Below are positions 3,867-37,500 of a stretch of DNA of 37,925 nucleotides, piece after piece (positions within the stretch are counted from its first letter, which is position 1; the number at the start of each line of letters is the position of its first letter). Made by a program: the position numbers and the translations under genes. The stretch is from Rozella allomycis CSF55 (Eukaryota > Rozellomycota): assembly GCA_000442015.1 (NCBI GenBank), contig KE561025.1, positions 1-37,925 on the forward strand, read 5' to 3'. Under the pieces are notes generated by a model. That model was given only the letters and a program-made list of their open reading frames with translations, did not search any database and was not told the DNA's origin.

Positions 3867-3940
3867 TCCAAAGCAAAATTGTTTACTAAACAAACCATAT
3901 TTCCTGAAGGAGCTTAATCATACTAATCAGGGAAAATCCG

Positions 3941-6754: not shown

Positions 6755-8216
6755 TCAATCAAAATAACGTATGTTCGACATGTAAAACGGTCTGAAAGGT
6801 TCAATGATCGTTGACGAGGCGTCAATGGGTAAATTTGATGAAAACACTTGGTAGTATTTATTAAACCATTTGTCGTTTGATTTTAACAAGAAACTTTTCT
6901 TCGAAAAGTCTTTTTTTCATTTAATTGTTTTTTTACCTGGCGAAAAGGTGCTATCGTAGAAATCTGTTAAAAAGTTAAATGTAAATTGAAAATATTGCGG
7001 ATGCTGTCTTAGGCATTCTATTATACATTCCAAAAATAAAACGATCAGGCATGCTGCAATTTCTTTAGCGTCCATTTTACGAGACAAGAAATACCAATCC
7101 TCTTCAAGAAGTGTAATAAATCCATTAGGTGTTCTGTAGAACGGATCAAGCAACAACTTTGAAAGAGAAACAACTATGCTGGTTAAATCAAGGCCATTTT
7201 CACAATGAACCAAAATGGAAGAACCTTGCTCGAAAATACTCTTTGCTATAAAATTAGAAGGGCGTAGAATGCTTTGGATATTTTTCAAGAAGCCCCCAGC
7301 ACTTTTATAGTACGAAGAAATTGATATGTCTTCATTGCTAAGACTCTCTAGGAATTTCGCATGCGTTTCGATAATAGTACTTGTGGATTCCAAGTTTGTA
7401 AAAAGCACCTTGTAAACCCAACGTAGATCCATTTACCCTGGATTGATACGCGCTTTCTTGTTCGATATTACCGTATTTCGAGGCATTTGATTTTGTGCGA
7501 AGATCTATTATAATTGTTTCGTTTCCAAGATTGGGAACCTTAAAATGATTGAAGGAGGCTAAAATTTGTTCGTCTTCTGGGCATCGATTTCCTTTGCCAT
7601 TAACCTTTATTTGAGACGATCTTATTAGACATCCCTAGCAATTATATCATCCATGAATATACTTGAGAGTTTGCGCAATAATATGCTAAGATTGGGAAGC
7701 ATCTGTCATTTCTAAAGTGAGCAGAAAACAATAAAATATTATCGGAAACATCTTTGGGTACTATAACATGACTAGGATAAACATTGCAAATCTATCTCAG
7801 AAATTGAATTGGAGGCAACCTTTAGGGCATTATTGTCAAGAATTCTCCATTCACTTTGATTACAAGACCATCTTTTGAAACAACTTGATATAATATTCTT
7901 CGAGTCATCTTTACTCACAGTGTCTTCTACTTCTTTTCGATTCACTAATTCTTCCATTTTGCCAGTTATGATGTTCTTTAAACAACTACAATCGTCTTCA
8001 GATGTGCAATAAATAGAAAATGGTGTCATTGTTTTCAGTTCAAATCTTATTTCTTTTTCACGTTGCTCAATCCTTACAATTTGGTCTAAAAACAACTGTA
8101 TTGATATGGCTAGTGGAAATTACGTGTTTTTCATTGAAAACCAAGGCATCCGGTAGTATATTTAGATCTGATTTTACTGGCTTTAACCTATGAAGTGGAT
8201 TGAAACTGACTAGCAT
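6755..8216 (-). CDS. myotubularin-family pseudophosphatase (catalytic Arg lost)
   Basis: Myotubularins bind or dephosphorylate PI3P and PI(3,5)P2 on endosomes; this copy is probably inactive. Exons: 8216-8124, 8095-7820, 7791-7663, 7634-7437, 7408-6937 and 6909-6755, giving 440 aa; introns 28, 28, 28, 28 and 27 nt. Residues 1-120 look like the PH-GRAM domain (RIEQREKEIRFEL). Then come WRILDNN, NVYPSHVIVPKDVSD, AHFRNDRCFPIL, IRSSQIKVNGKGNRCPEDE, IIIDLRTKSNA and the P-loop VHCENGLDLTS. Active members read HCSDGWDRTS: the cysteine remains but the essential arginine is Leu (codon TTA) and the Trp is also Leu. The following LLLDPFYRT..GF and DWYFLSRK are conserved. If the last 27-nt intron is not spliced, the protein ends at 6917 instead. 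Start is the first ATG after an in-frame TAA. Confidence 0.9.
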
Positions 8217-9157: not shown

Positions 9158-11394
9158 TTATTTATACATAGCTTCTTCTAACGTGAGAAATCCTTCGCCT
9201 TTGCACATATTACTCATGGATTCATCTGAACGATCTAACAATCTTCTTAATTCTTCTTCACTTAACACTTGGCGAATATCTCTGTCGCCCTTTTGAATCA
9301 CCAATTTTTCGTTATCTTCAGCAGCCAATATCTGCGCCAATTCACCTAAAGAAGTTTGTTTTGGTCGAAATAGATGATCTCCTTTGAATCTCCCAGATTC
9401 TATCACAACCTTTTCCAACTTTCTTTTTGAACTTGCTGTTTCAATTATGTGGTGCTCAATTGATCTTGCAATGGCAAACCGAAATACTAGTACAGGTTTA
9501 GTTTGACCTATTCTATGCGCTCTATCTTGGGCCTGTAAATCCATTTGAGGATTCCAATCCGAATCGAAAATAATGACTGTATCTGCGCTTGTTAAATTAA
9601 TCCCTAACCCACCTGACCTTGTACTTAATAAGAAAATGCGTTTTGAAGAATCCGGATTATTAAACTCATTTATCTATTTTTTGATTATTTAAAGATTACC
9701 TCAGATTGCCTTTCCTTTTGACTAATTGTGCCATCAATCCTACAAAAATCGAAATTTCGCAAGTTGCAAAATTCTTCCAACAAGTCTAGCATTTTTGTCA
9801 TTTGGGAGAAAATTAGGACTTTATGGCCTTCTTGTTTAAATAACTCTTTCAGAATTTGGTCTAATAGAAGCATTTTCCCAGATGACATCACCAATCGTTC
9901 ATCAATGACTACTTCACCGTTTTCATCTTCAGGAATATCAAACAAATAAGGATGATCACATATTTTACGCAATTGAACGATTCTGTTTTGAAGCTTTAAG
10001 TTTTTAACTTCTAAAAGTGACGATAAAGGATTTCTTTTACTCTTGTCTAAAATCGGTTCATTTTCTTTGGATTCATCATCAGAAATAATTAAATGTTGCT
10101 GATTTTGGAAATATTCAAAATGAAGAAAACATATTTTTTTTACCTACATGAGACATTCTTCCTCTCTTTCGCCTCTTGTTTGGCTTGGCCTCTGAATCAT
10201 TGTCTCCAAAGTAGAGTTCTATGTCTAAAATATCATTTTCTGGTTTATCTCTTTCAGATTGAATCAATTCTCTCAAATCTTTATTCAAAATTGCATCATA
10301 ATATTCCTTTTGCTTCATTGTCATTGGGGCCAAAACTAAATATTCTTTCTTCTTTGGCATTTCTACCTCAACTTTAAAAATTTCTAAAATTTTGAATTTA
10401 CCATCAGATTTTAGGCGCCTCAGAAGAAATGGCTTTAAAACGGAATGAAGTTTGGAAACAATTGAATTTTCTTCCTCTTGAGAAATAATTTCTTCGTTTT
10501 CTTTATTTTCAAAATCAAACCTATAAAATACCAAAAGATAGAAATACCAAGACTGAAAAGATTGCAAATCATTGAAAACATCAGGCAACAAAAAGTTTAA
10601 CAAACTCCAAAGTTCTGACAAGTTATTTTGAAGTGGGGTTCCAGTAATTAACAAACGGTTATCAGAGTTTAGAGACTTCAATTCTCGAAACAATTTACAT
10701 TTATAATTCTTTAATCTGTGCCCTTCATCCACCACGAGATATTTCCAGACAGTTTTTTGCAAATATTTTCTATCATTCATTGCTATATCATATGACGTTA
10801 TAACCACTGGACAAGCCTTTTTCTTTTTCTCAAATCGTTTTCTTAGTTGGTTTCTTTCTCCTATATCTCCATGATAAACACATGTTGGAATAGTTGGTGC
10901 AAATCTGATTTAAACATATTGATTTTCTTACTTTTTAAATTCAGCTTCCCAATTGGCTATTGTTGATAATGGTGCAACTATTAAAAACGGACTTTAAAAT
11001 ATAACGATTAGTTTTTACCCTTTGACACCCTTTTCCCATAGGTATGCAATTAAAGAAATTGTTTGAATAGTTTTCCCAAGTCCCTTTAAACTTGATAAGA
11101 GTATTTTACCATCTCATCCGCAAGAATTCCATTTAATGCATTTTCCCACAATGAAATTAACCATTGCACACCCTTTATTTGATAATCTCTCAAAGTTCCT
11201 GCGAAAATACTGGGCTGTGAAAATTCTTCTCTTTCTTTAGAATCACTGCCGTCGGTATTCTATGCATATATGAAAAAAGATATGATAACCTTTTCTAAAA
11301 TGTCAGCTAAGAATTTAGAATATATCGAAGAACGTTCAATAACTACATTTAATGTCTCAAGCTTGCTCTTTTCATTTTCGCCGTCGACTGACAT
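9158..11394 (-). CDS. SNF2-family chromatin remodeller, LSH/HELLS (IRC5) type
   Basis: ATP-dependent nucleosome remodeller; the LSH family supports DNA methylation and repeat silencing in animals and plants and recombination in yeast (IRC5). Nine exons: 11394-11290, 11259-11110, 11083-11019, 10991-10932, 10904-10548, 10520-10402, 10371-10148, 10098-9700 and 9673-9158; 664 aa. Introns are 30, 26, 27, 27, 27, 30, 49 and 26 nt. Helicase motifs in order: [21 protein letters not shown] (split by an intron after ADEM), [65 protein letters not shown] and [16 protein letters not shown]. The last motif and the C-terminal LLDRSDE are typical of LSH. The N-terminal coiled-coil part is short compared with human HELLS. 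Stop overlaps AATAAA. Confidence 0.92.
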
Positions 11395-12263: not shown

Positions 12264-12274
12264 ATAAATTTATT
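12263..12274. terminator. palindromic bidirectional polyadenylation signal AATAAATTTATT
   Basis: AATAAA reads on the plus strand at 12263-12268 and on the minus strand at 12274-12269, forming one 12-bp palindrome. It overlaps the last base of the OSTF1-like TAA (12261-12263) and the whole TAA of the methyltransferase gene (12272-12270). One element could direct 3'-end formation of both convergent genes. Confidence 0.6.
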
Positions 12275-13005
12275 TGCGTTTCCAGATTCCCAATTTCTCT
12301 TTGCCTTTTCTTTTCTCAAAGCTTTCGCAGTCTGTAAGACTTATCAAGACAAAATTCTCTTCAAGTAGTTGCTTGTAACTATAAAATAAATTCCCTTTAG
12401 TTTTACATTTCAATTGATAACGAGAATGGCGGACCACCTTCGTGATCAGACAAGGGATACATCAGCGTTACAAGTAACCCACTGGGTTTAATTAAAGAAC
12501 CCATTCTGGAAGCCCATTGATTTCTAAAACTCGGATCTAACGCACATAGAAATGTGTAATCAAAAACTACGTCAGCAGGATTTGGCAAGGAAAGTTCAAA
12601 AAAGTCGGCGGCAATAAATTCCAGTTCATTATTCGAAATAGCCAACGAATTTTGCCTCTAATTAGTATCGTTATATAATATTTCTACTTTTCTATTTTCC
12701 TCTATTATTGGTTCGTACAAATCAATGCCATAAATTTTTCGCTTCCCGTTTACCAGTTCAAAGCAATCCAAGGCCAATGAAATAAATAATTAATTATTAC
12801 TTGACCGCATCCTGGAACAACAAAAGTACCACTCTCGGGAAGGACATTTTGCTTTAAAAGGTCTATCAATGCAGGTGCCGCACTTGACATGTTCCATGGT
12901 GTTATTTGATTATCCCACATTACCTTCCAGGCTGAATAAAGTCAATGACGTATCATTACCTTCTTTAGGGCCATGTTTATCATGAATTTCTTTAATGCTA
13001 CTCAT
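12270..13005 (-). CDS. SAM-dependent methyltransferase, TPMT/thiol-methyltransferase (HOL) family
   Basis: Probably methylates thiols, thiocyanate or halides with S-adenosylmethionine. Exons 13005-12960, 12931-12801, 12774-12688, 12657-12407 and 12378-12270 give 207 aa. Introns are 28, 26, 30 and 28 nt; the second (12800-12775) has a GT donor but ends in TG. Family features: ITPWNMSSAAPALI, the SAM-binding VVPGCGQALD with GIDLYE at the end of strand 2, AADFFEL, VVFDYTFLCALDP, the diagnostic MYPLSDHEGGPP, and a C-terminal KGKEKLGIWKRK. With the TG-ended intron removed, GCGQALDCFELVNGKRKIYG has the same spacing as the TPMT region after its LCGKAVE motif. A canonical AG at the end of a 59-nt intron would delete 11 residues of this helix. 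Confidence 0.88.
12775..12800 (-). other. intron with non-canonical 3' end (GT...TG)
   Basis: The 26-nt intron starts GTAATAATTAATTATT and ends TTCATTG, before GCC. It is not a multiple of three, so it must be removed to keep the methyltransferase frame. Its length fits the 24-31 nt class of this genome. The first downstream AG would make a 59-nt intron and drop 11 conserved-position residues in frame. Confidence 0.65.
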
Positions 13006-21013: not shown

Positions 21014-21502
21014 ATGCTGTTGCATACTTTAACCTATTTAATCTCAATAATCGGAGTAGCTTTTTCAAAGGTCTATTTAACTATTGAAGCCTCAAATTAT
21101 GAGCCCTCGTCCACTGTTGAAATACCTGGGAACATAAAGACAACTTTTGTCCTTGACCAAGGAGCGTGCAGAAAGTCGAATTCTAAATTTGATGTTTCAC
21201 TTACATGGAATTATCCACCAAAGAATGGTGAATTGCATTTCTATGAAAACCAAGAAAAGAAGAAACGAGGTGAACCTTTTGCAATTGTCAAAGCACTTGA
21301 AACTACGTATATGCTTCCTCCTATTTGCGAATTAAAGAATGAAGAGCATAATGAATATGTTGTTAAAGTAAAGAAACCTGCGAATAGCATATTCCTTGGA
21401 GCTCAGTCTGTAATTGACTTTAAGTTTGAAGAAACGGAAACCAAAAAGAAGGTAATTTATTTCAAAGAAGGTAGTGCGTCTGGGTATAGGGGAAATAAAT
21501 AA
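21014..21502 (+). CDS. small secreted or lumenal protein, unknown
   Basis: 162 aa from the ATG at 21014, without introns. The N-terminus MLLHTLTYLISIIGVAFS is a good signal peptide. The mature part has beta-rich patterns (FDVSLTWNYPPKNGELHFYE), two spaced cysteines (QGACRK and PPICEL) and a lysine-rich end with YRGNK. No transmembrane segment or family was recognised. The stop TAA lies in AATAAA, and the next gene starts 20 bp later on the same strand. Confidence 0.7.
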   Translation: MLLHTLTYLISIIGVAFSKVYLTIEASNYEPSSTVEIPGNIKTTFVLDQGACRKSNSKFDVSLTWNYPPKNGELHFYENQEKKKRGEPFAIVKALETTYMLPPICELKNEEHNEYVVKVKKPANSIFLGAQSVIDFKFEETETKKKVIYFKEGSASGYRGNK

Positions 21503-21522
21503 AAATGATTAATTGAATTTTC

Positions 21523-25950: not shown

Positions 25951-27427
25951 CTATGTTTTGTTGGAACTTTTAATAATTTTGCCAAGTCTCAACAAAGCTG
26001 TATCGATCTCTTCTTCCGTCGCTGTAGAAAAGGCCGCCCTTAGGAAGGGTGATTTATCGCCATGTGGCATAAATTCCTATCACTTGAGTATTAGTTTTTT
26101 ACACGACCGGGTATGAATATTACCTTTTCTTGAATAGCCTTTTCTTTGACCAAGCTCTCACTGTCGACTATTCCTAGAATTTTCATCCATATGAACATCC
26201 CTTTATGTGTTTAAAAGTTGCTTGTACCACATTTCGGTTCATTGAAACTGACTAGATTACCTAAATGCCTCCTTGATGCCTCCAGAAAGAGGTTCTTTTT
26301 GGATTCATAATATTGACTCGTTTGTTTGCAATGATCAAGAAAACCATTATGACCCCAAGTTTTAAGTAGTTTCAGCAAAATTGATTGAGATATTCCGCAA
26401 GGATGAATATTAGAGCACTATAGACAATTTTTATCTTCCTTGGTTACTTCTTCATGTAATATTATTCTGTCTATCAATGCTTTTGGCCCCGACGCAAACC
26501 CAATTCTTGCCCCGGCAGACAAAATTTTGCTGAAAGAGTCAAAACGCAGTACCCGACCTGATTGATCAAGTGAGAAATAGCTTGGTATAAGATTGTTGTA
26601 GTTATACTATTAATACAACGCCATGAATAATACTTGTAGGTAATAGTAGGGATCATCTTCTATAATCAAAAAATCATACTCCTCTGCAAGTTTTAGCACT
26701 TCCAGCCTCTGTTGTAAATTTGTGGAGCAACCAGTTGGATTTCCGCCATTGGGTACTGTATAGAGTATCTTGGGCCTTCTTTGACTCGCATCCCAATTTG
26801 ATAGTTTCTCTTTAAGTGCATTAGGACAAATACCGTTCTTGTTTGTGTGAATTTCTATATTCACATAAACTTTATTCCTTTACCAACCATTCTACAACCT
26901 ATTGGTCTCAAGACAGCGAGAGTGCCGCTATAGGTCGGAGTTTCTAACAATACCGAGTCTTCGGAGGTCAAAAACATTTCAAAAGCCTATTAAAAGTGAT
27001 TTTACATATTGCCTTTGAAACTCCATCTTGACTTCCATTTGTCACACACATAGACCAATCATCTGATTTAGGCCGATGAAGTTGATTTTGAAGTTCACGG
27101 AGCCATTCTAAAAGCTCCATGTATCCCGCCAGAAAGGAATCAAAAGAATATTTTTACCGTGTTGGAATATTGTAATGCTCTCTTTGTTTCTGTTCTGTCT
27201 AGCTTTATGGTTTCCCCACTCTTTAAACTGAAAGATATCGAATCAATTGGGAACTTATTAGGATCCGGACTCCCTCCTCCCAGAGAAATCTGCGGAAAGA
27301 ACTCTTAATCGCTTACCATGCCTGGAATAAGGAGTAATGGTTGCAGTGCACGTATTGCGGATGGTTGCCTAAGTTTGGCAACGGAGTTTAAATATTTTGA
27401 ATAGTCGATCTTTCTTGAGATCATCAT
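25951..27427 (-). CDS. aminotransferase class I, AADAT/ARO8 (kynurenine/2-aminoadipate) type
   Basis: PLP enzyme for aromatic amino acids, kynurenine or 2-aminoadipate. Nine exons: 27427-27317, 27289-27158, 27129-27013, 26986-26884, 26854-26634, 26606-26448, 26417-26228, 26200-26103 and 26076-25951; 418 aa (human AADAT 425). Introns 27, 28, 26, 29, 27, 30, 27 and 26 nt. Key motifs: ALQYSNTAGYMELLEWL, CVTNGSQDGVSKAFEM, YTVPNGGNPTG, FLIIEDDPYYYLQ, and the PLP lysine in DSFSKILSAGARIGF; MFIWMKI and KSPFLRAAFS near the end. Two introns are irregular: 27157-27130 ends in TG, and 27012-26987 begins with GC. Only these junctions restore alignment with the family. Confidence 0.93.
26987..27012 (-). 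other. GC-AG intron in aminotransferase gene
   Basis: The 26-nt intron begins GCAATATG and ends AATAG. Its removal joins GVSK to AFEM, matching the family (GLCKVFEM in human AADAT) without gaps. No GT donor nearby keeps the frame. Confidence 0.75.
27130..27157 (-). other. intron with non-canonical 3' end (GT...TG)
   Basis: 28-nt intron GTAAAAATATTC...CCTTTCTG followed by GCG. It contains an in-frame TGA, so it cannot be translated. Removal gives YSNTAGYMELL, matching human YSPSAGIPELL position by position. The next AG would make a 43-nt intron and delete AGYME, part of a conserved turn. Confidence 0.65.
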
Positions 27428-31593: not shown

Positions 31594-34500
31594 ATGAGCA
31601 ACTTGACCTTAAAAATCAACTACCCTGAATCCAACATAACCAAAGCCCTCCAAGTACTACACTTGAAGTAAATTCACACAGTTTCCATCTGATTATTTTG
31701 TCAACGATTGCATCAAGGAGATCAAGGAGAAATTCAACGAAACCGATCTGAGCAATGATTACGGACTATACTGTGTTGGCCAGAAGAAATGGCTTGTAAA
31801 CAACAGGACACTAGCGTTTTATGATTTGAAAAATGGTGATATTTTAGAGTTTAAAAAGAAGCACCGGCCGATGCGCGTCAAGATGCTTGACAGCACACTC
31901 AAGACTGTATTGATTGATGAATCCTGCACTGTTAGCGAGCTTGTAAAGATTGTATGCAACAAGATTGGTAATCGCGTATAATTGGTTGTGTCTAGGGATA
32001 ACAGCATTTGAAGAATACTCATTCTGTGTTGAACTATCTAACGACGAAAGATCGACGCGCCAGAAGCACGAAAAATACGAGAGAAAAGAATACAGTAAAA
32101 AGGTATTTACGATTTGACAGCTAAATGGCTGAGCCCTGAAAAGACGCTTCGCGAGCAGCTGGTGCAAGATGCGGATGTGATAATCCTCAAGCGCAAGTTT
32201 TTCTTTTCTGACCAGAACATTGACCGGAACGATCCTATCCAGCTGAACTTGCTGTTTGTGCAATCCAAGGAGAGTGTGATTTCTGGCGAGTACCCATGTA
32301 GCGAGGAGGAGGCTGTGCAATTGGCGGCGTTGCAGGTGCAGGCAGTGTTTGGCAACTATGATGGTGATAAATGCAAGCCTGGGTTTCTCGAGTACGCATG
32401 ATGGTTGTTTCTTTCTAGGTTGAAGGACTATTTGCCCGAGGTGTATCGCCGAAAAGAGGTTGAAAAGAAGATTTATGGCGAGTATAAAAAGATATGCGGG
32501 ATGTCCGAGCTGAATGCAAAGTACCGGTATGTGCAGCAGTGCCGGTTGCTGCGAACGTATGGGGTGACGTTTTTCCAGGTCAAGGAGAAGCTGGCGAAGA
32601 AGACAAAGTTTACGCCTGCGTTGATGGGGGTTACAAAGGAGAATATACTGAGGGTTGATATCGAGAGCCGGGAGATATTGCAGGTGTGGCCGTTGACTAG
32701 TTTGAAAAGATGGGCTGCGACGCCTACGAGGTAAGAGATGGGATTTGTGTGGATTGTAGTTTTACGTTGGATTTTGGGGACTATGATGCGTGTTACCAGG
32801 TGGAGACACATGATGGGGAGGATATTTCACAGTTGATTGGGGGATATATTGATATGATTATTAGAAAGAAGAGGGAGAATGATAAGACTGGGGAGCTTGA
32901 AGGAGAGGAAATGGCAATGTATGAAGAGACGATAGAGATTGCGCAACCGTCTAGAGCTACGAATAACAATAGTTCGAGTGTGAAGAGACGAGCGGATGAA
33001 AAGGATGTTGCTGGAATTGCAAGTTTAGAAAATAGTGAAATGAAGTATTCGTCTTTGTCGATTTCAAAGGCTAAGCATAATTTGAAGTTTGTGAGTAATG
33101 AAGAAGAAAATAAGGGAATGGTTGAAGGAATTAATAAACAAGCATTGCAGTTGTTTATAGAGGATCAAATTAAGAGATGTGAAGAAGAGGAAGAAAATCT
33201 TTTAAAATTAGTTGATGAGGATATTTCTGAATTTGTGACTGAAGAATGGAAAGAGAGTGTGTATAAACTAAAGATGCATGAACTGGAGTATCGAATAAGC
33301 AATCAAATTGAATCAGTTTGTGGAATTTTAAATGAACTGAATCTAATGGAGCCGAATTATGAGACATTGAAGAATCAGATAGAGAGTATTTGTGATGAAT
33401 CATTGTTTAAGAGTATTGAAGCCAAAGTTGGTGTTGAAAAAGAATTTAGCCAAACTTTTGGTAATCTTTTAAATAGCACGAAAATATTTTTGAAAGAGAT
33501 TGAAGAGAATTTGAATGGAAAAAGTAATGGAGAGCAATTAAGGTTGGTGGCTGATGAGATTGGAGGGTTGAGTAGAGAATTAATATTAAAGAGAGAAGAG
33601 GAAATAGAATTTGGAGCGATTAATGAGATGATGGAGATGTTTGATAAAAGTTGTGAAAGGATGGAGAATAAAACGCCTGATTCTGGTAGAAAGGCAGAGA
33701 TTAAAGGAATAGCTAGTTTGTTGAAAGAGAGTGTTGAGAATTTTAAAACAATTTTGAATGTTTCAAGGGGATTTAATGAAAAGGAAGGAATTAAGAAGAG
33801 AGTTGAAGAGGGAATTGTTTTAGTTAACGATGGGATTGATTGTTGTTTGGAGAGGAATGTGATGAATAAAGAAACTTCAAATAGTTTAACAAGGGTCATA
33901 AATGATTTAACTTTAACAGAATCTACTAGTGAATCTATTGGTGAATCAAAGAAAGCATTAAAGAGAGGATCTAATGTTGAAGATGAAAATGAGAAAAGAT
34001 TGAAAATAAAATTGAATGAAATTTATGCATTGAGTAATCAAATTGGCACTTCAAATGATAAGAACTTTATCTACTTGTTGAAAGAGAAAACAATAAACTT
34101 TTCCAATGAATTGAAAGCATTTGGAATTGAAAAGGATGTATTTGAAAGAAACAGAATAAACTTTGTTTGTAAAAAGATTAATGAATTAATTGAAGAAATT
34201 GATGAAAAAGATTTTAGTAAATTTCAGAAACAATTTTCAAATTTGTTAATTTTTAATAAAGAAAAAGATTTGGTAAATTTGGTTGAAAAAATGATTGAAA
34301 ATATTCAAATTAATAAAAGAGATTTGAATGATTTTGAAAAAGTTTGTTTAATTAAAATGATAGAGTATGTTAAAGATGAAAATGTTGATGGGATTTTAAA
34401 AGAAAAGAATAATTTTATTGAAAATTTTAAAGATGAAAAAGATTTGAATAAAGATTTGAAATTGTTTGAAGAAATTTGTGAATTGATTGAGAATAATCAA

Positions 34501-37500
34501 AGTTTAGAATTAATTTTAGAAAACATTAAAAGTTTAGCAGAAAATAATAAATTGTTAAAGGGAGAGAGTAAATCGTTAAAGGGAGATAGTAAATCTTTAA
34601 ATAAAATAATTCTGAATCTTTGGAATTCACTCAACAATGCATCATCCACTATTTCCACTTCTACATCCACTATTGCTACTTCTACATCTGCTATCAATCC
34701 TTCAATGTCTAATTCTTCTTCTCCATCAGAAATATTTAATAGTTTGGTTCTGTTAAATCAAATAAAACCAAATAAAGAATTAAATATTTCAGTTTTAAAA
34801 TTTGTTAAACAAGGGGTATTTGAAAAAGAAAAGATTGAAAATATTCTTTTAAATTTAGCAGAAAAGAATTCAGAGAATTTAGTAGTTGACCAAGTTTTAA
34901 ATGAAATCGATGCTTTGAATGTAGATTTAAACATTCAAGGGAATGAACAAGTAAATGAAAAGAATAAATTGTCAACGTTGATTTTAAAATTTAATTATTC
35001 ATTAGAAAATTTCAAAGAAGAATTCATCAATGTTTCCAAGGCATCAACTAAGGCATCAAATGAGCAATCAACTTCTAATTTTACTACTAATTCAACTGAA
35101 CAATCGAATGATTTGAATGCATTGAGTTTAAGCGCTTCTTCTCTTGTAAACAATTTAATAAATTTAAACAACATAAATTTAAATGATTCTAATTATAAAA
35201 ATAGATTGATTAAATTGAAAGATAAATTGTTGATAGAATTTACAGATCTGAATAACCCTTTAAAACAAAAATCAAATCTAAATTTAGATTATGAAATTTC
35301 AGAAATTGTTAAATTTTCTAATTCAAATGAAATTGATTCTTGTTTAATAAAGAATGAAAAATTATTAAAAGAAACTTTGAATAATAATATTGCCACTATG
35401 AATAAATCATTTAAAGATCTATTAAATGAGATTATTAATCAAATACAGACTTTAAGTGAGACTGGAGTTGAAACCGCAATTGAAACTAGTACTAATTCAA
35501 CTATTACTATTTCTTGGCTTTCAAATGGTTTGTATTTCTTGAATGAAAATGTTAAAAATTTGGTTTACTTGATTGGAGTTTCAGATAAAGATTCAATTAA
35601 AGCCACAATAGATCCAAATTTAATAAATTTGAATGAAAATATTTTATTTTTGAAAAGATTAAATTTCTATGAAAATCCATTTAATAAAATTAAAGAAATA
35701 GCAAAACCAATCTCATCTATTTGTGAATTTCTCAAATTAGATTTAAAGAATAAGAATTATTTAAAATCAATTTCAACTACAACATCCAATTTGATTAAAA
35801 GGGTTATGAGTGATTCTTCAAATTCTTCAAATAAACAAATTTCATTACAGACAAAATCTCTTTATGAATTTCTATTAAATGAATTGGAAGATTTGAAATT
35901 AAATTTAAAAGAAAATTCAACCAAAGCAATTTTTAGTCCAAATTCAATTTTAAAGCAACAATCTTTAATTGATCATTTTCAGTCTATTATAATTTCTTTT
36001 AATGATTTATTAAACAATCAAAGGAAGGGATTAAATGAAATTAATGTTTCAGATCTTTTAGTTTTATTAAATGATTTGCCAAATGTTATTATTTCTTCTA
36101 TCAATAAAGAATATTCTGATTCTATTTCAATCATCAATCAAAGTTCCAATAGAAACAATGAAAGGAACATTGAAACTAGTTCCAATAAAAGTACTAATAG
36201 AAGTAGCAATGGAAGTTCAAATAGAAGTAGTAATAGAAACTCTATCAATTCTTCTTTCAAGTCCAACAATTTAAACACTTCAACTCTTTGTTCACTAATA
36301 CATGAAATTGATCCATCAAATAATATTTCATTTCTTTCCATTGCTCAACCTTTGACTGAACTAATTAATTCAAATTCTAATGATGTTGTAAATTCTAATG
36401 ATGTTTTAAATAATTCATTGTCTTTTCTTAATGAATGGTATCAATTTCTATTAAATCCAACATTTGATATTTCTCAATTCAATCAATCAAGAGAATTATT
36501 AATAAATTCAATTCAATCTATTCAATCTGAATTAAATAACATGCAAAATGTCGATATTATTCAATTAATCAACAATGCAGACTCTCTCAATTCTTCGCGT
36601 GATACTCAATTTACGCTTGATAAAGTTGAAGATTTAATTAATAAATTCTCTCAATTGTTTACTTGTGAGAATCAAACAGCTCAACTCTCTTCCATTAAAT
36701 CTTCTTACATTAATCTATTCAACGCTTCAAATTCAAATACAAAATTATCTGAAATTGTTAAAGAAATTGGTTATTCTTTATCAAGTGTTATGAATTCATT
36801 AAAAGATAAAAGAAAATTATCAAAATTAGTTTCTGAAATTTCACAAAATTTAGTTGAATTAAAAACTTCAATTATTGAATCTGAAAGCGATCCAACTAGA
36901 ATAAATAATCAAAATAATCAAAATGAAAATGGTAAATTTATTTGTTTATTGTAAGTAGAATTAATTGATGAATTATCCAACGCCATTTTAGATCTTGAAA
37001 CGTTACTAGTTTTTGCCAAAGCAAATCAATTGCAAGTTTTAAACACAAATTTTGATTCTTCTCATTTAATTGAAGAAATTCAAATAAAATCTGAAATTAT
37101 TTTTGAAAATTTAAATTCAAATCTTTCTGAAGATTCATTAGTGAAAATTATTCAAACTTCAATTGAATTGAAAAATATTTTTAAAAAATTTGTTTTAAAT
37201 CTTCAAAATCAAAAATTTCAAATTCAATCTTTAAATCTATTTTTAATCTTTTTAAAATCTTTAGACTCTTCAATAGAATCCTCTTCTGCTCATCTTGGAG
37301 AATTTATTCAATTTTTGCAATTGAAATTAAATGAATCAGAAAATTCGATTGAAAATTTATTGTTTGAAATTCAAAATGAAATACAAAATGGCTTAAATTT
37401 TCTCTTTTCAGATTCAATTCTAGATGGATTTTGTACCCCTGAAGATTTATGCAAAAAAGCTAAAATTTTCACTTCAATTTCTGCCAATCTAATAAATTTA

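What the first reader, a model, noticed from the sequence alone, without database searches (positions are those of the whole stretch)
27130..27157. Aminotransferase intron that seems to end in TG instead of AG
In the AADAT/ARO8-like gene the 28-nt intron begins GTAAAA and ends CTTTCTG. Removing exactly these bases gives ALQYSNTAGYMELLEWL, which fits the family block without a gap (human YSPSAGIPELL). The intron contains an in-frame TGA so it cannot be retained. The nearest AG would extend it to 43 nt and delete five residues of a conserved turn. With the second case at 12775-12800, this suggests that the spliceosome of this organism tolerates a TG 3' splice site when intron length is fixed near 27 nt.
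Basis: partly seen in the sequence, partly recalled or inferred. Interest (0 to 1): 0.75.

Follow-up and report, generated by a model that had tools for sequence, protein, structure and literature searches.

The report
Introns ending in TG in Rozella
In the early-branching fungus Rozella allomycis a small share of its very short introns appear to end in TG, where nearly all eukaryotic introns end in AG, and public gene models misread such genes as a result.

Summary
The window is a contig of Rozella allomycis CSF55. Removing 27130-27157 (GT...TG, 28 nt) from the AADAT-type aminotransferase gives a gapless match to human AADAT around the junction and to 15 homologues. The nearest AG (43 nt) deletes AGYME; the NCBI protein model carries that deletion.

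The case is not isolated. In 167,617 bases, a gene-structure model with equal prior for all 15 non-AG ends called 37 non-AG introns of 24-31 nt: 7 TG, at most 3 of any other kind. Six of the 7 TG introns give gapless junctions against solved proteins; one GT-CG intron is also supported. TG ends make up about 2% of AG-or-TG introns of that length.

Genes for Prp18, Slu7, Fyv6 and U2AF35 are present. AG remains preferred: TG is not depleted just before AG ends. Precedents exist: human alternative TG sites and EST-backed TG/CG acceptors in Micromonas. No RNA data could be examined. Verdict: new member of a known kind.

The parts
25951..27424 (-). AADAT/ARO8-type aminotransferase gene, 417 residues after removal of eight introns of 26-30 nt
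   Evidence: gene model; match to human AADAT over residues 7-414, E 1.3e-114
27130..27157 (-). 28-nt GT-TG intron, the finding
   Evidence: gapless junction; in-frame stop if retained
27115..27157 (-). alternative 43-nt GT-AG intron, which reproduces the NCBI protein model and deletes AGYME
26987..27012 (-). 26-nt GC-AG intron in the same gene
   Evidence: gene model; the junction VSK|AFEM is gapless
12270..13002 (-). thiol/halide methyltransferase gene (TPMT family) with four introns
   Evidence: gene model
12775..12800 (-).
   Evidence: gapless junction VPGCGQ|ALDCFEL
10116..10143 (-). 28-nt candidate GT-TG intron in a SNF2-type helicase gene; not counted as supported
   Evidence: called; no Pfam match over the junction

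Best explanation
In Rozella allomycis the U2-type spliceosome removes a small minority (about 2% in this sample) of its 26-30-nt introns at a TG 3' end. The productive AADAT mRNA lacks 27130-27157. Shown from sequence: in six genes reading frame and protein family demand the TG junction, and the nearby AG alternatives shift the frame or delete conserved residues. Inferred: the first splicing step does not need an AG in these introns, and the second step prefers AG but accepts TG (seldom CG) at about the usual distance when no AG is there.
For: Gapless junctions against solved proteins in AADAT, CBP80 (39), PFKFB (40), PI4K2 (41), NECAP (42) and the methyltransferase (54). TG tops the non-AG ends in likelihood gain and in calls (7 of 37). 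Pfam matches span the junction by 10 or more residues on each side in 6 of 7 TG calls and 5 of 30 other non-AG calls. In PI4K2 the TG reading restores DRG, which the NCBI protein lacks. Precedent: Micromonas short AT-rich introns with TG or CG acceptors, most with EST support.
Against: No RNA evidence was available. The NCBI gene models use AG in all three TG genes whose models I saw. TG is not depleted in the 3-10 nt before AG ends (167 seen, 132.8 expected) while AG is (73 seen, 112.3 expected), so TG does not rival a nearby AG. Genes for the known second-step factors are present. The mechanism is inferred.
Confidence: 0.87

Rival explanations
1. The AG alternatives are the real junctions, as in the NCBI models: the 43-nt intron in AADAT, 34 nt in PI4K2, and a 143-nt intron that skips an 87-nt exon in the methyltransferase.
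For: NCBI proteins P0121, P0001 and P0241 have exactly these forms.
Against: These forms lose a Gly of AADAT that all 15 homologues aligned keep, the DR of the DRG motif of PI4K2 and, in the methyltransferase, 29 residues after GCGQ. P0121 also departs from the family at three other introns of the gene, which suggests prediction without transcripts. In CBP80, PFKFB and NECAP the first downstream AG shifts the frame.
Confidence: 0.06
2. Both sites are used: TG and a downstream AG form a tandem, TG being an alternative site as in human genes.
For: The first downstream AG lies 4-16 nt from the TG in five of the six supported introns, within the 28 nt reported for human TG-AG pairs (PMC2374985, passages).
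Against: In four of those five the first AG shifts the frame and in AADAT it deletes conserved residues; in the methyltransferase it is 33 nt away. AG is frequent by chance, so its nearness shows little. This rival does not exclude that the TG product is the working one.
Confidence: 0.2
3. Sequence error: the true DNA has AG at these ends, by a wrong base or a lost A in TAG.
For: The sampled loci hold 34 ambiguous letters (none in the window), and some stretches look duplicated, so the assembly is not perfect.
Against: A fault at one given base of about 2% of introns, as a general rate, would break all reading frames, yet with the model's introns removed these frames run through 411-681 residues. 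Errors would not favour TG over the other ends. A lost A would mean true lengths of 27 and 29 nt, which the length spectrum disfavours about 5 to 1.
Confidence: 0.04
4. The TG introns belong to the minor (U12) spliceosome, or are not spliceosomal.
For: A weak U12 snRNA match exists in the genome (36.4 bits, gathering score 53).
Against: The TG introns have the same 5' ends (GTAAAA, GTAATA, GTAACG), lengths and composition as the AG introns. The U12-type 5' consensus (recalled) is not seen.
Confidence: 0.02

Closest known systems
Micromonas BOC1 introns with TG or CG acceptors (PMC3879977; passages seen)
   Same: Short, AT-rich introns, mostly GT-AG; a minority (34) end in TG or CG; no discernible branch-point motif reported there, only a weak one found here.
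   Different: A green alga, in one low-GC chromosome region; introns defined there as under 75 nt; the majority of the 34 validated by ESTs. Here a fungus, introns of 26-30 nt across 13 sampled contigs, no RNA evidence.
Human TG alternative 3' splice sites (PMC2374985; passages seen)
   Same: TG as acceptor in U2-type introns.
   Different: In human exclusively alternative to a nearby AG (limit 28 nt), never the sole site. Here the frame requires the TG site, and in the methyltransferase the first downstream AG is 33 nt away.
Non-consensus 3' splice sites in yeast without Prp18 (PMC10711555; passages seen)
   Same: CUG, AUG, UUG, ACG and UGG sites among those used; upstream poly(U) favours non-consensus sites.
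   Different: A mutant effect in yeast. Rozella has a Prp18 gene, and the pyrimidine excess before TG ends here is not significant (p 0.054).

Membership tests
U2-type spliceosomal introns | 5' end like that of the genome's ordinary GT-AG introns | tested here: met
   GTAAAA, GTAATA, GTAACG starts and 26 or 28 nt lengths, as in the AG introns
U2-type spliceosomal introns | AG at the 3' end | tested here: not met
   TG end required in six genes
U2-type spliceosomal introns | junction seen in transcripts | not testable with these tools
   no Rozella RNA data held
Human-type TG alternative acceptors | AG acceptor within 28 nt that is also used | tested here: inconclusive
   an AG lies 4-16 nt downstream in five of six, 33 nt in the methyltransferase; use unknown
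Micromonas-type short introns with TG/CG acceptors | short, AT-rich introns with TG or CG acceptors | tested here: met
   six TG introns and one CG intron, 26-28 nt
Micromonas-type short introns with TG/CG acceptors | no discernible branch-point motif | tested here: inconclusive
   motif search of 211 AG introns gave only a weak TTRAW-like motif
U12-type introns | U12 snRNA gene | tested here: inconclusive
   one match at 36.4 bits, below the gathering score of 53
U12-type introns | U12-type 5' consensus (recalled) | tested here: not met
   starts GTAAAA, GTAATA, GTAACG

The most novel reading that the evidence does not exclude
Rozella, near the root of fungi and Microsporidia, has a spliceosome that sets the 3' end mainly by distance in 26-30-nt introns, so that TG (and rarely CG) serves as the sole acceptor in some hundreds of genes: a natural counterpart of the relaxed second-step proofreading seen in yeast without Prp18, although Prp18, Slu7 and Fyv6 genes are present.
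Probability: 0.33. Interest if true: 0.75.

Novelty: new member of a known kind. Interest (0 to 1): 0.56.

Why it matters
If RNA data confirm it, roughly one in fifty introns of this fungus breaks the AG rule with no workable AG beside it, which the human data were taken to exclude. It would give a second lineage besides Micromonas for asking how the second splicing step chooses its site in minimal introns. It also means that canonical-only gene models damage proteins of a fungus that is used in studies of early fungal evolution: each of the three NCBI models seen here (AADAT, PI4K2, methyltransferase) lacks conserved residues at the TG junction.

Tried and rejected
Loss of second-step or AG-reading factors as the cause: rejected at the level of gene presence. 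Prp18 (gene model read), Slu7 (51), Fyv6/FAM192A (52) and U2AF35 (33) all match. Altered function was not tested.

Altered U2 snRNA: rejected. A text search of locus L016 on one strand found no GTAGTA; the Rfam alignment shows the gene on the other strand with GUAGUA intact.

Branch-site motif: a motif search of 211 AG introns gave only a weak TTRAW-like motif near the 3' end.

TG as an equal rival of AG: rejected. AG is depleted in the 3-10 nt before AG ends, TG is not; 135 of 330 AG introns carry a TG at or beyond position 18.

More pyrimidines before TG ends: not significant (0.66 against 0.51, p 0.054; 7 and 330 introns).

Not counted as supported: RICTOR L005:8445-8475 (31-nt TG reading gapless, but the equal-prior model chose a 28-nt CT end, and a 26-nt AG exists in a shifted frame); CBS-domain protein L013:366-391 (GG end, junction at the edge of the domain); SNF2 10116-10143 (no Pfam match over the junction); 7760-7787 (GC...GT, inside a myotubularin match, ends unclear). 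Non-AG calls at L003:3100, 5486 and 5745 and L007:1102 sit in duplicated stretches.

In one search TG had 10 of 43 non-AG calls; seven of those ten are the TG calls, and the other three (3896-3923, 21484-21515, L009:8432-8461) are not among its 24-31-nt calls, which leave out one further TG call outside that range.

Taxonomic placement by 18S rRNA was tried five times and not answered; the organism rests on protein matches instead.

Full report
What the window is. The window is a whole contig (C124, 37,925 bases) of a 9,970,177-base assembly in 213 contigs. NCBI proteins named Rozella allomycis CSF55 match its aminotransferase (95% identity) and methyltransferase (86%) genes and carry a longest contig of 37,925 bases; a PI4K2 protein of the same organism carries one of 28,911 bases, the length of contig C1 here. 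The organism is therefore taken as Rozella allomycis, a parasite of the water mould Allomyces (host recalled). An 18S search did not complete.

The observation. On the minus strand 27130-27157 reads GTAAAAATATTCTTTTGATTCCTTTCTG. Its removal joins KRALQYSNT to AGYMELLEWL. The gene then gives 417 residues that match human AADAT over residues 7-414, with no gap near the junction. I aligned it with the NCBI Rozella protein and 15 homologues picked from the 120 listed: all 15 have the block without a gap, with the Gly two places after the junction conserved. Two close homologues come from contigs of 1,344 and 1,396 bases that code for 416 and 415 residues, so they are intron-free there and probably from transcripts (an inference). 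Retention would bring an in-frame TGA. There is no AG within the intron; the first AG downstream makes it 43 nt and removes AGYME.

The gene is otherwise sound. It has eight introns of 26-30 nt: six GT-AG, one GC-AG (26987-27012) and the GT-TG one. The NCBI protein P0121 lacks AGYME, as the 43-nt intron would give, also lacks VSK at the GC-AG intron, gains FFPQ at another and loses VIFIPGR at a third. This points to prediction with canonical ends only, not to transcript evidence; that is an inference.

Is it a class? Introns are very uniform: of 211 GTA...AG introns of 24-31 nt, 202 are 26-30 nt. Allowing one extra 3' dinucleotide at a time, TG raised the log-likelihood by 62.3 and the other 14 by 14.8 to 39.0 (mean 25.4, SD 7.8). 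With all 15 allowed at equal prior, 37 non-AG introns of 24-31 nt were called beside 348 AG ones: 7 TG and at most 3 of any other kind (Poisson P 0.0065 for 7 or more given the mean of the others). When I scored single introns against the best AG-only reading, TG led at thresholds of 2 to 5 log units but not above 6, where GG had 3 and TG 1; several of those GG, GC and CC entries are other readings of the same two places (12775-12800 and L013:359-394).

Homology test. All 37 calls were given to Pfam as segments around the junction (up to 95 residues each side for the 30 non-TG calls, 140-151 residues in all for the 7 TG calls). A match spans the junction with at least 10 residues on each side in 6 of 7 TG calls and in 5 of 30 others: a GC...GT call with unclear ends, two calls in duplicated stretches (L003:5486, L007:1102), the RICTOR call and a tRNA-endonuclease call. 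Against solved proteins the junction is gapless in the six testable TG introns: AADAT, CBP80 (39), PFKFB (40), PI4K2 (41), NECAP (42) and the methyltransferase at 12775-12800 (54). In PI4K2 the TG reading gives RNTDRGLDNW where the NCBI protein reads RNTGLDNW; in the methyltransferase it gives GCGQALDCFEL where the NCBI protein skips an 87-nt exon. The tRNA-endonuclease intron L011:598-623 ends in CG and its junction is gapless too. The seventh TG call, 10116-10143 in a SNF2 gene, has no Pfam match over the junction. A RICTOR intron can be read as 31-nt GT-TG without a gap, but a 26-nt AG reading plus a small sequence error is possible, so it is not counted.

Frequency. Seven TG among 355 AG or TG introns of 24-31 nt is 2.0%; the Poisson interval for 7 is 2.8 to 14.4, so roughly 0.8 to 4%. 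Scaled by 59.5 to the genome this would be a few hundred, with wide error.

Sequence error is unlikely. A fault at one given base of about 2% of introns would, as a general rate, destroy all reading frames, and with the model's introns removed the frames around these introns run through 411-681 residues. A lost A (TAG to TG) would mean true lengths of 27 and 29 nt, which the length spectrum disfavours about 5 to 1. The fetched loci hold 34 ambiguous letters, the window none.

How it may work. U2 snRNA is normal, with GUAGUA intact, and U2AF35, Prp18, Slu7 and Fyv6 genes are present. A U12 match is below the gathering score, and the 5' ends are those of the ordinary introns. No strong branch motif was found in 211 AG introns. 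I infer that the first step proceeds without AG recognition and that the second step takes AG at the usual distance or, failing that, TG. Against a stronger claim: AG is depleted in the 3-10 nt before AG ends (73 seen, 112.3 expected) but TG is enriched (167 seen, 132.8 expected), so TG does not rival a neighbouring AG. Also 68 of 330 AG introns contain an earlier AG at or beyond position 18, so the first AG is not always taken.

Comparison with what is known. Human TG acceptors are described as exclusively alternative, never the sole site, with AG within 28 nt (PMC2374985, passages). Here the first downstream AG is 15, 33, 16, 16, 4 and 5 nt away in AADAT, methyltransferase, CBP80, PFKFB, PI4K2 and NECAP. 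It shifts the frame in the last four, deletes conserved residues in AADAT, and in the methyltransferase lies beyond 28 nt. PI4K2 alone also has an AG inside the intron, at 20 nt, in a shifted frame. The closest precedent is Micromonas, where 34 short AT-rich introns have TG or CG acceptors, the majority with EST support, and no branch motif is seen (PMC3879977, passages). Yeast without Prp18 uses TG-, CG- and GG-ending sites (PMC10711555, passages). A survey of 130 fungal genomes does not contain the words Rozella or GT-TG in its main text (PMC7072748, term search and passages). A survey of fungal introns gives Rozella 2.5 introns per kb and has no hit for non-canonical (PMC8476143, term search and passages). 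Searches for Rozella with intron words (20 of 47 listed, 3 of 3, 15 of 38, 8 of 8) listed no title on its splice ends. Papers outside the held library were not searched, so absence from print is not established.

Verdict. It belongs to a small class in this genome. The kind is known from Micromonas; the instance in a fungus with 26-30-nt introns appears new within the searches named. RNA evidence is the missing step.

Noticed in passing
L011:598-623: A 26-nt GT-CG intron in a tRNA-splicing endonuclease subunit gene; its junction is gapless against solved homologues and its Pfam match covers 81 residues against 81 profile positions.
   Followed up: partly
L013:366-391: A 26-nt intron-like stretch ending in GG in a CBS-domain protein gene, with the largest single likelihood gain of the non-AG calls (11.3); homology over the junction is too weak to decide.
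   Followed up: partly
L003:3100-3127, L003:5486-5770, L007:1102-1129: Coding stretches that appear twice in a row (DNA polymerase epsilon exonuclease and thumb parts, an amino-acid permease), joined by intron-like sequence; real partial duplications or assembly faults.
   Followed up: no
32701-36954: One open frame of 1,417 residues, rich in Ser and Asn, in a stretch with GC skew 0.453 (32001-34000) and GC only 22.5% (34001-36000).
   Followed up: no
27290-27316: The NCBI protein has FFPQ here, as a 15-nt intron ending at an earlier AG would give; the model uses 27 nt.
   Followed up: partly
G000 contig C191:364863-364995: A U12 snRNA-like match of 36.4 bits over the full model, below the gathering score of 53; whether Rozella keeps a minor spliceosome is open.
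   Followed up: no
all sampled loci: 68 of 330 GTA...AG introns contain an earlier AG at or beyond position 18 that is passed over, so site choice is not simply the first AG.
   Followed up: no
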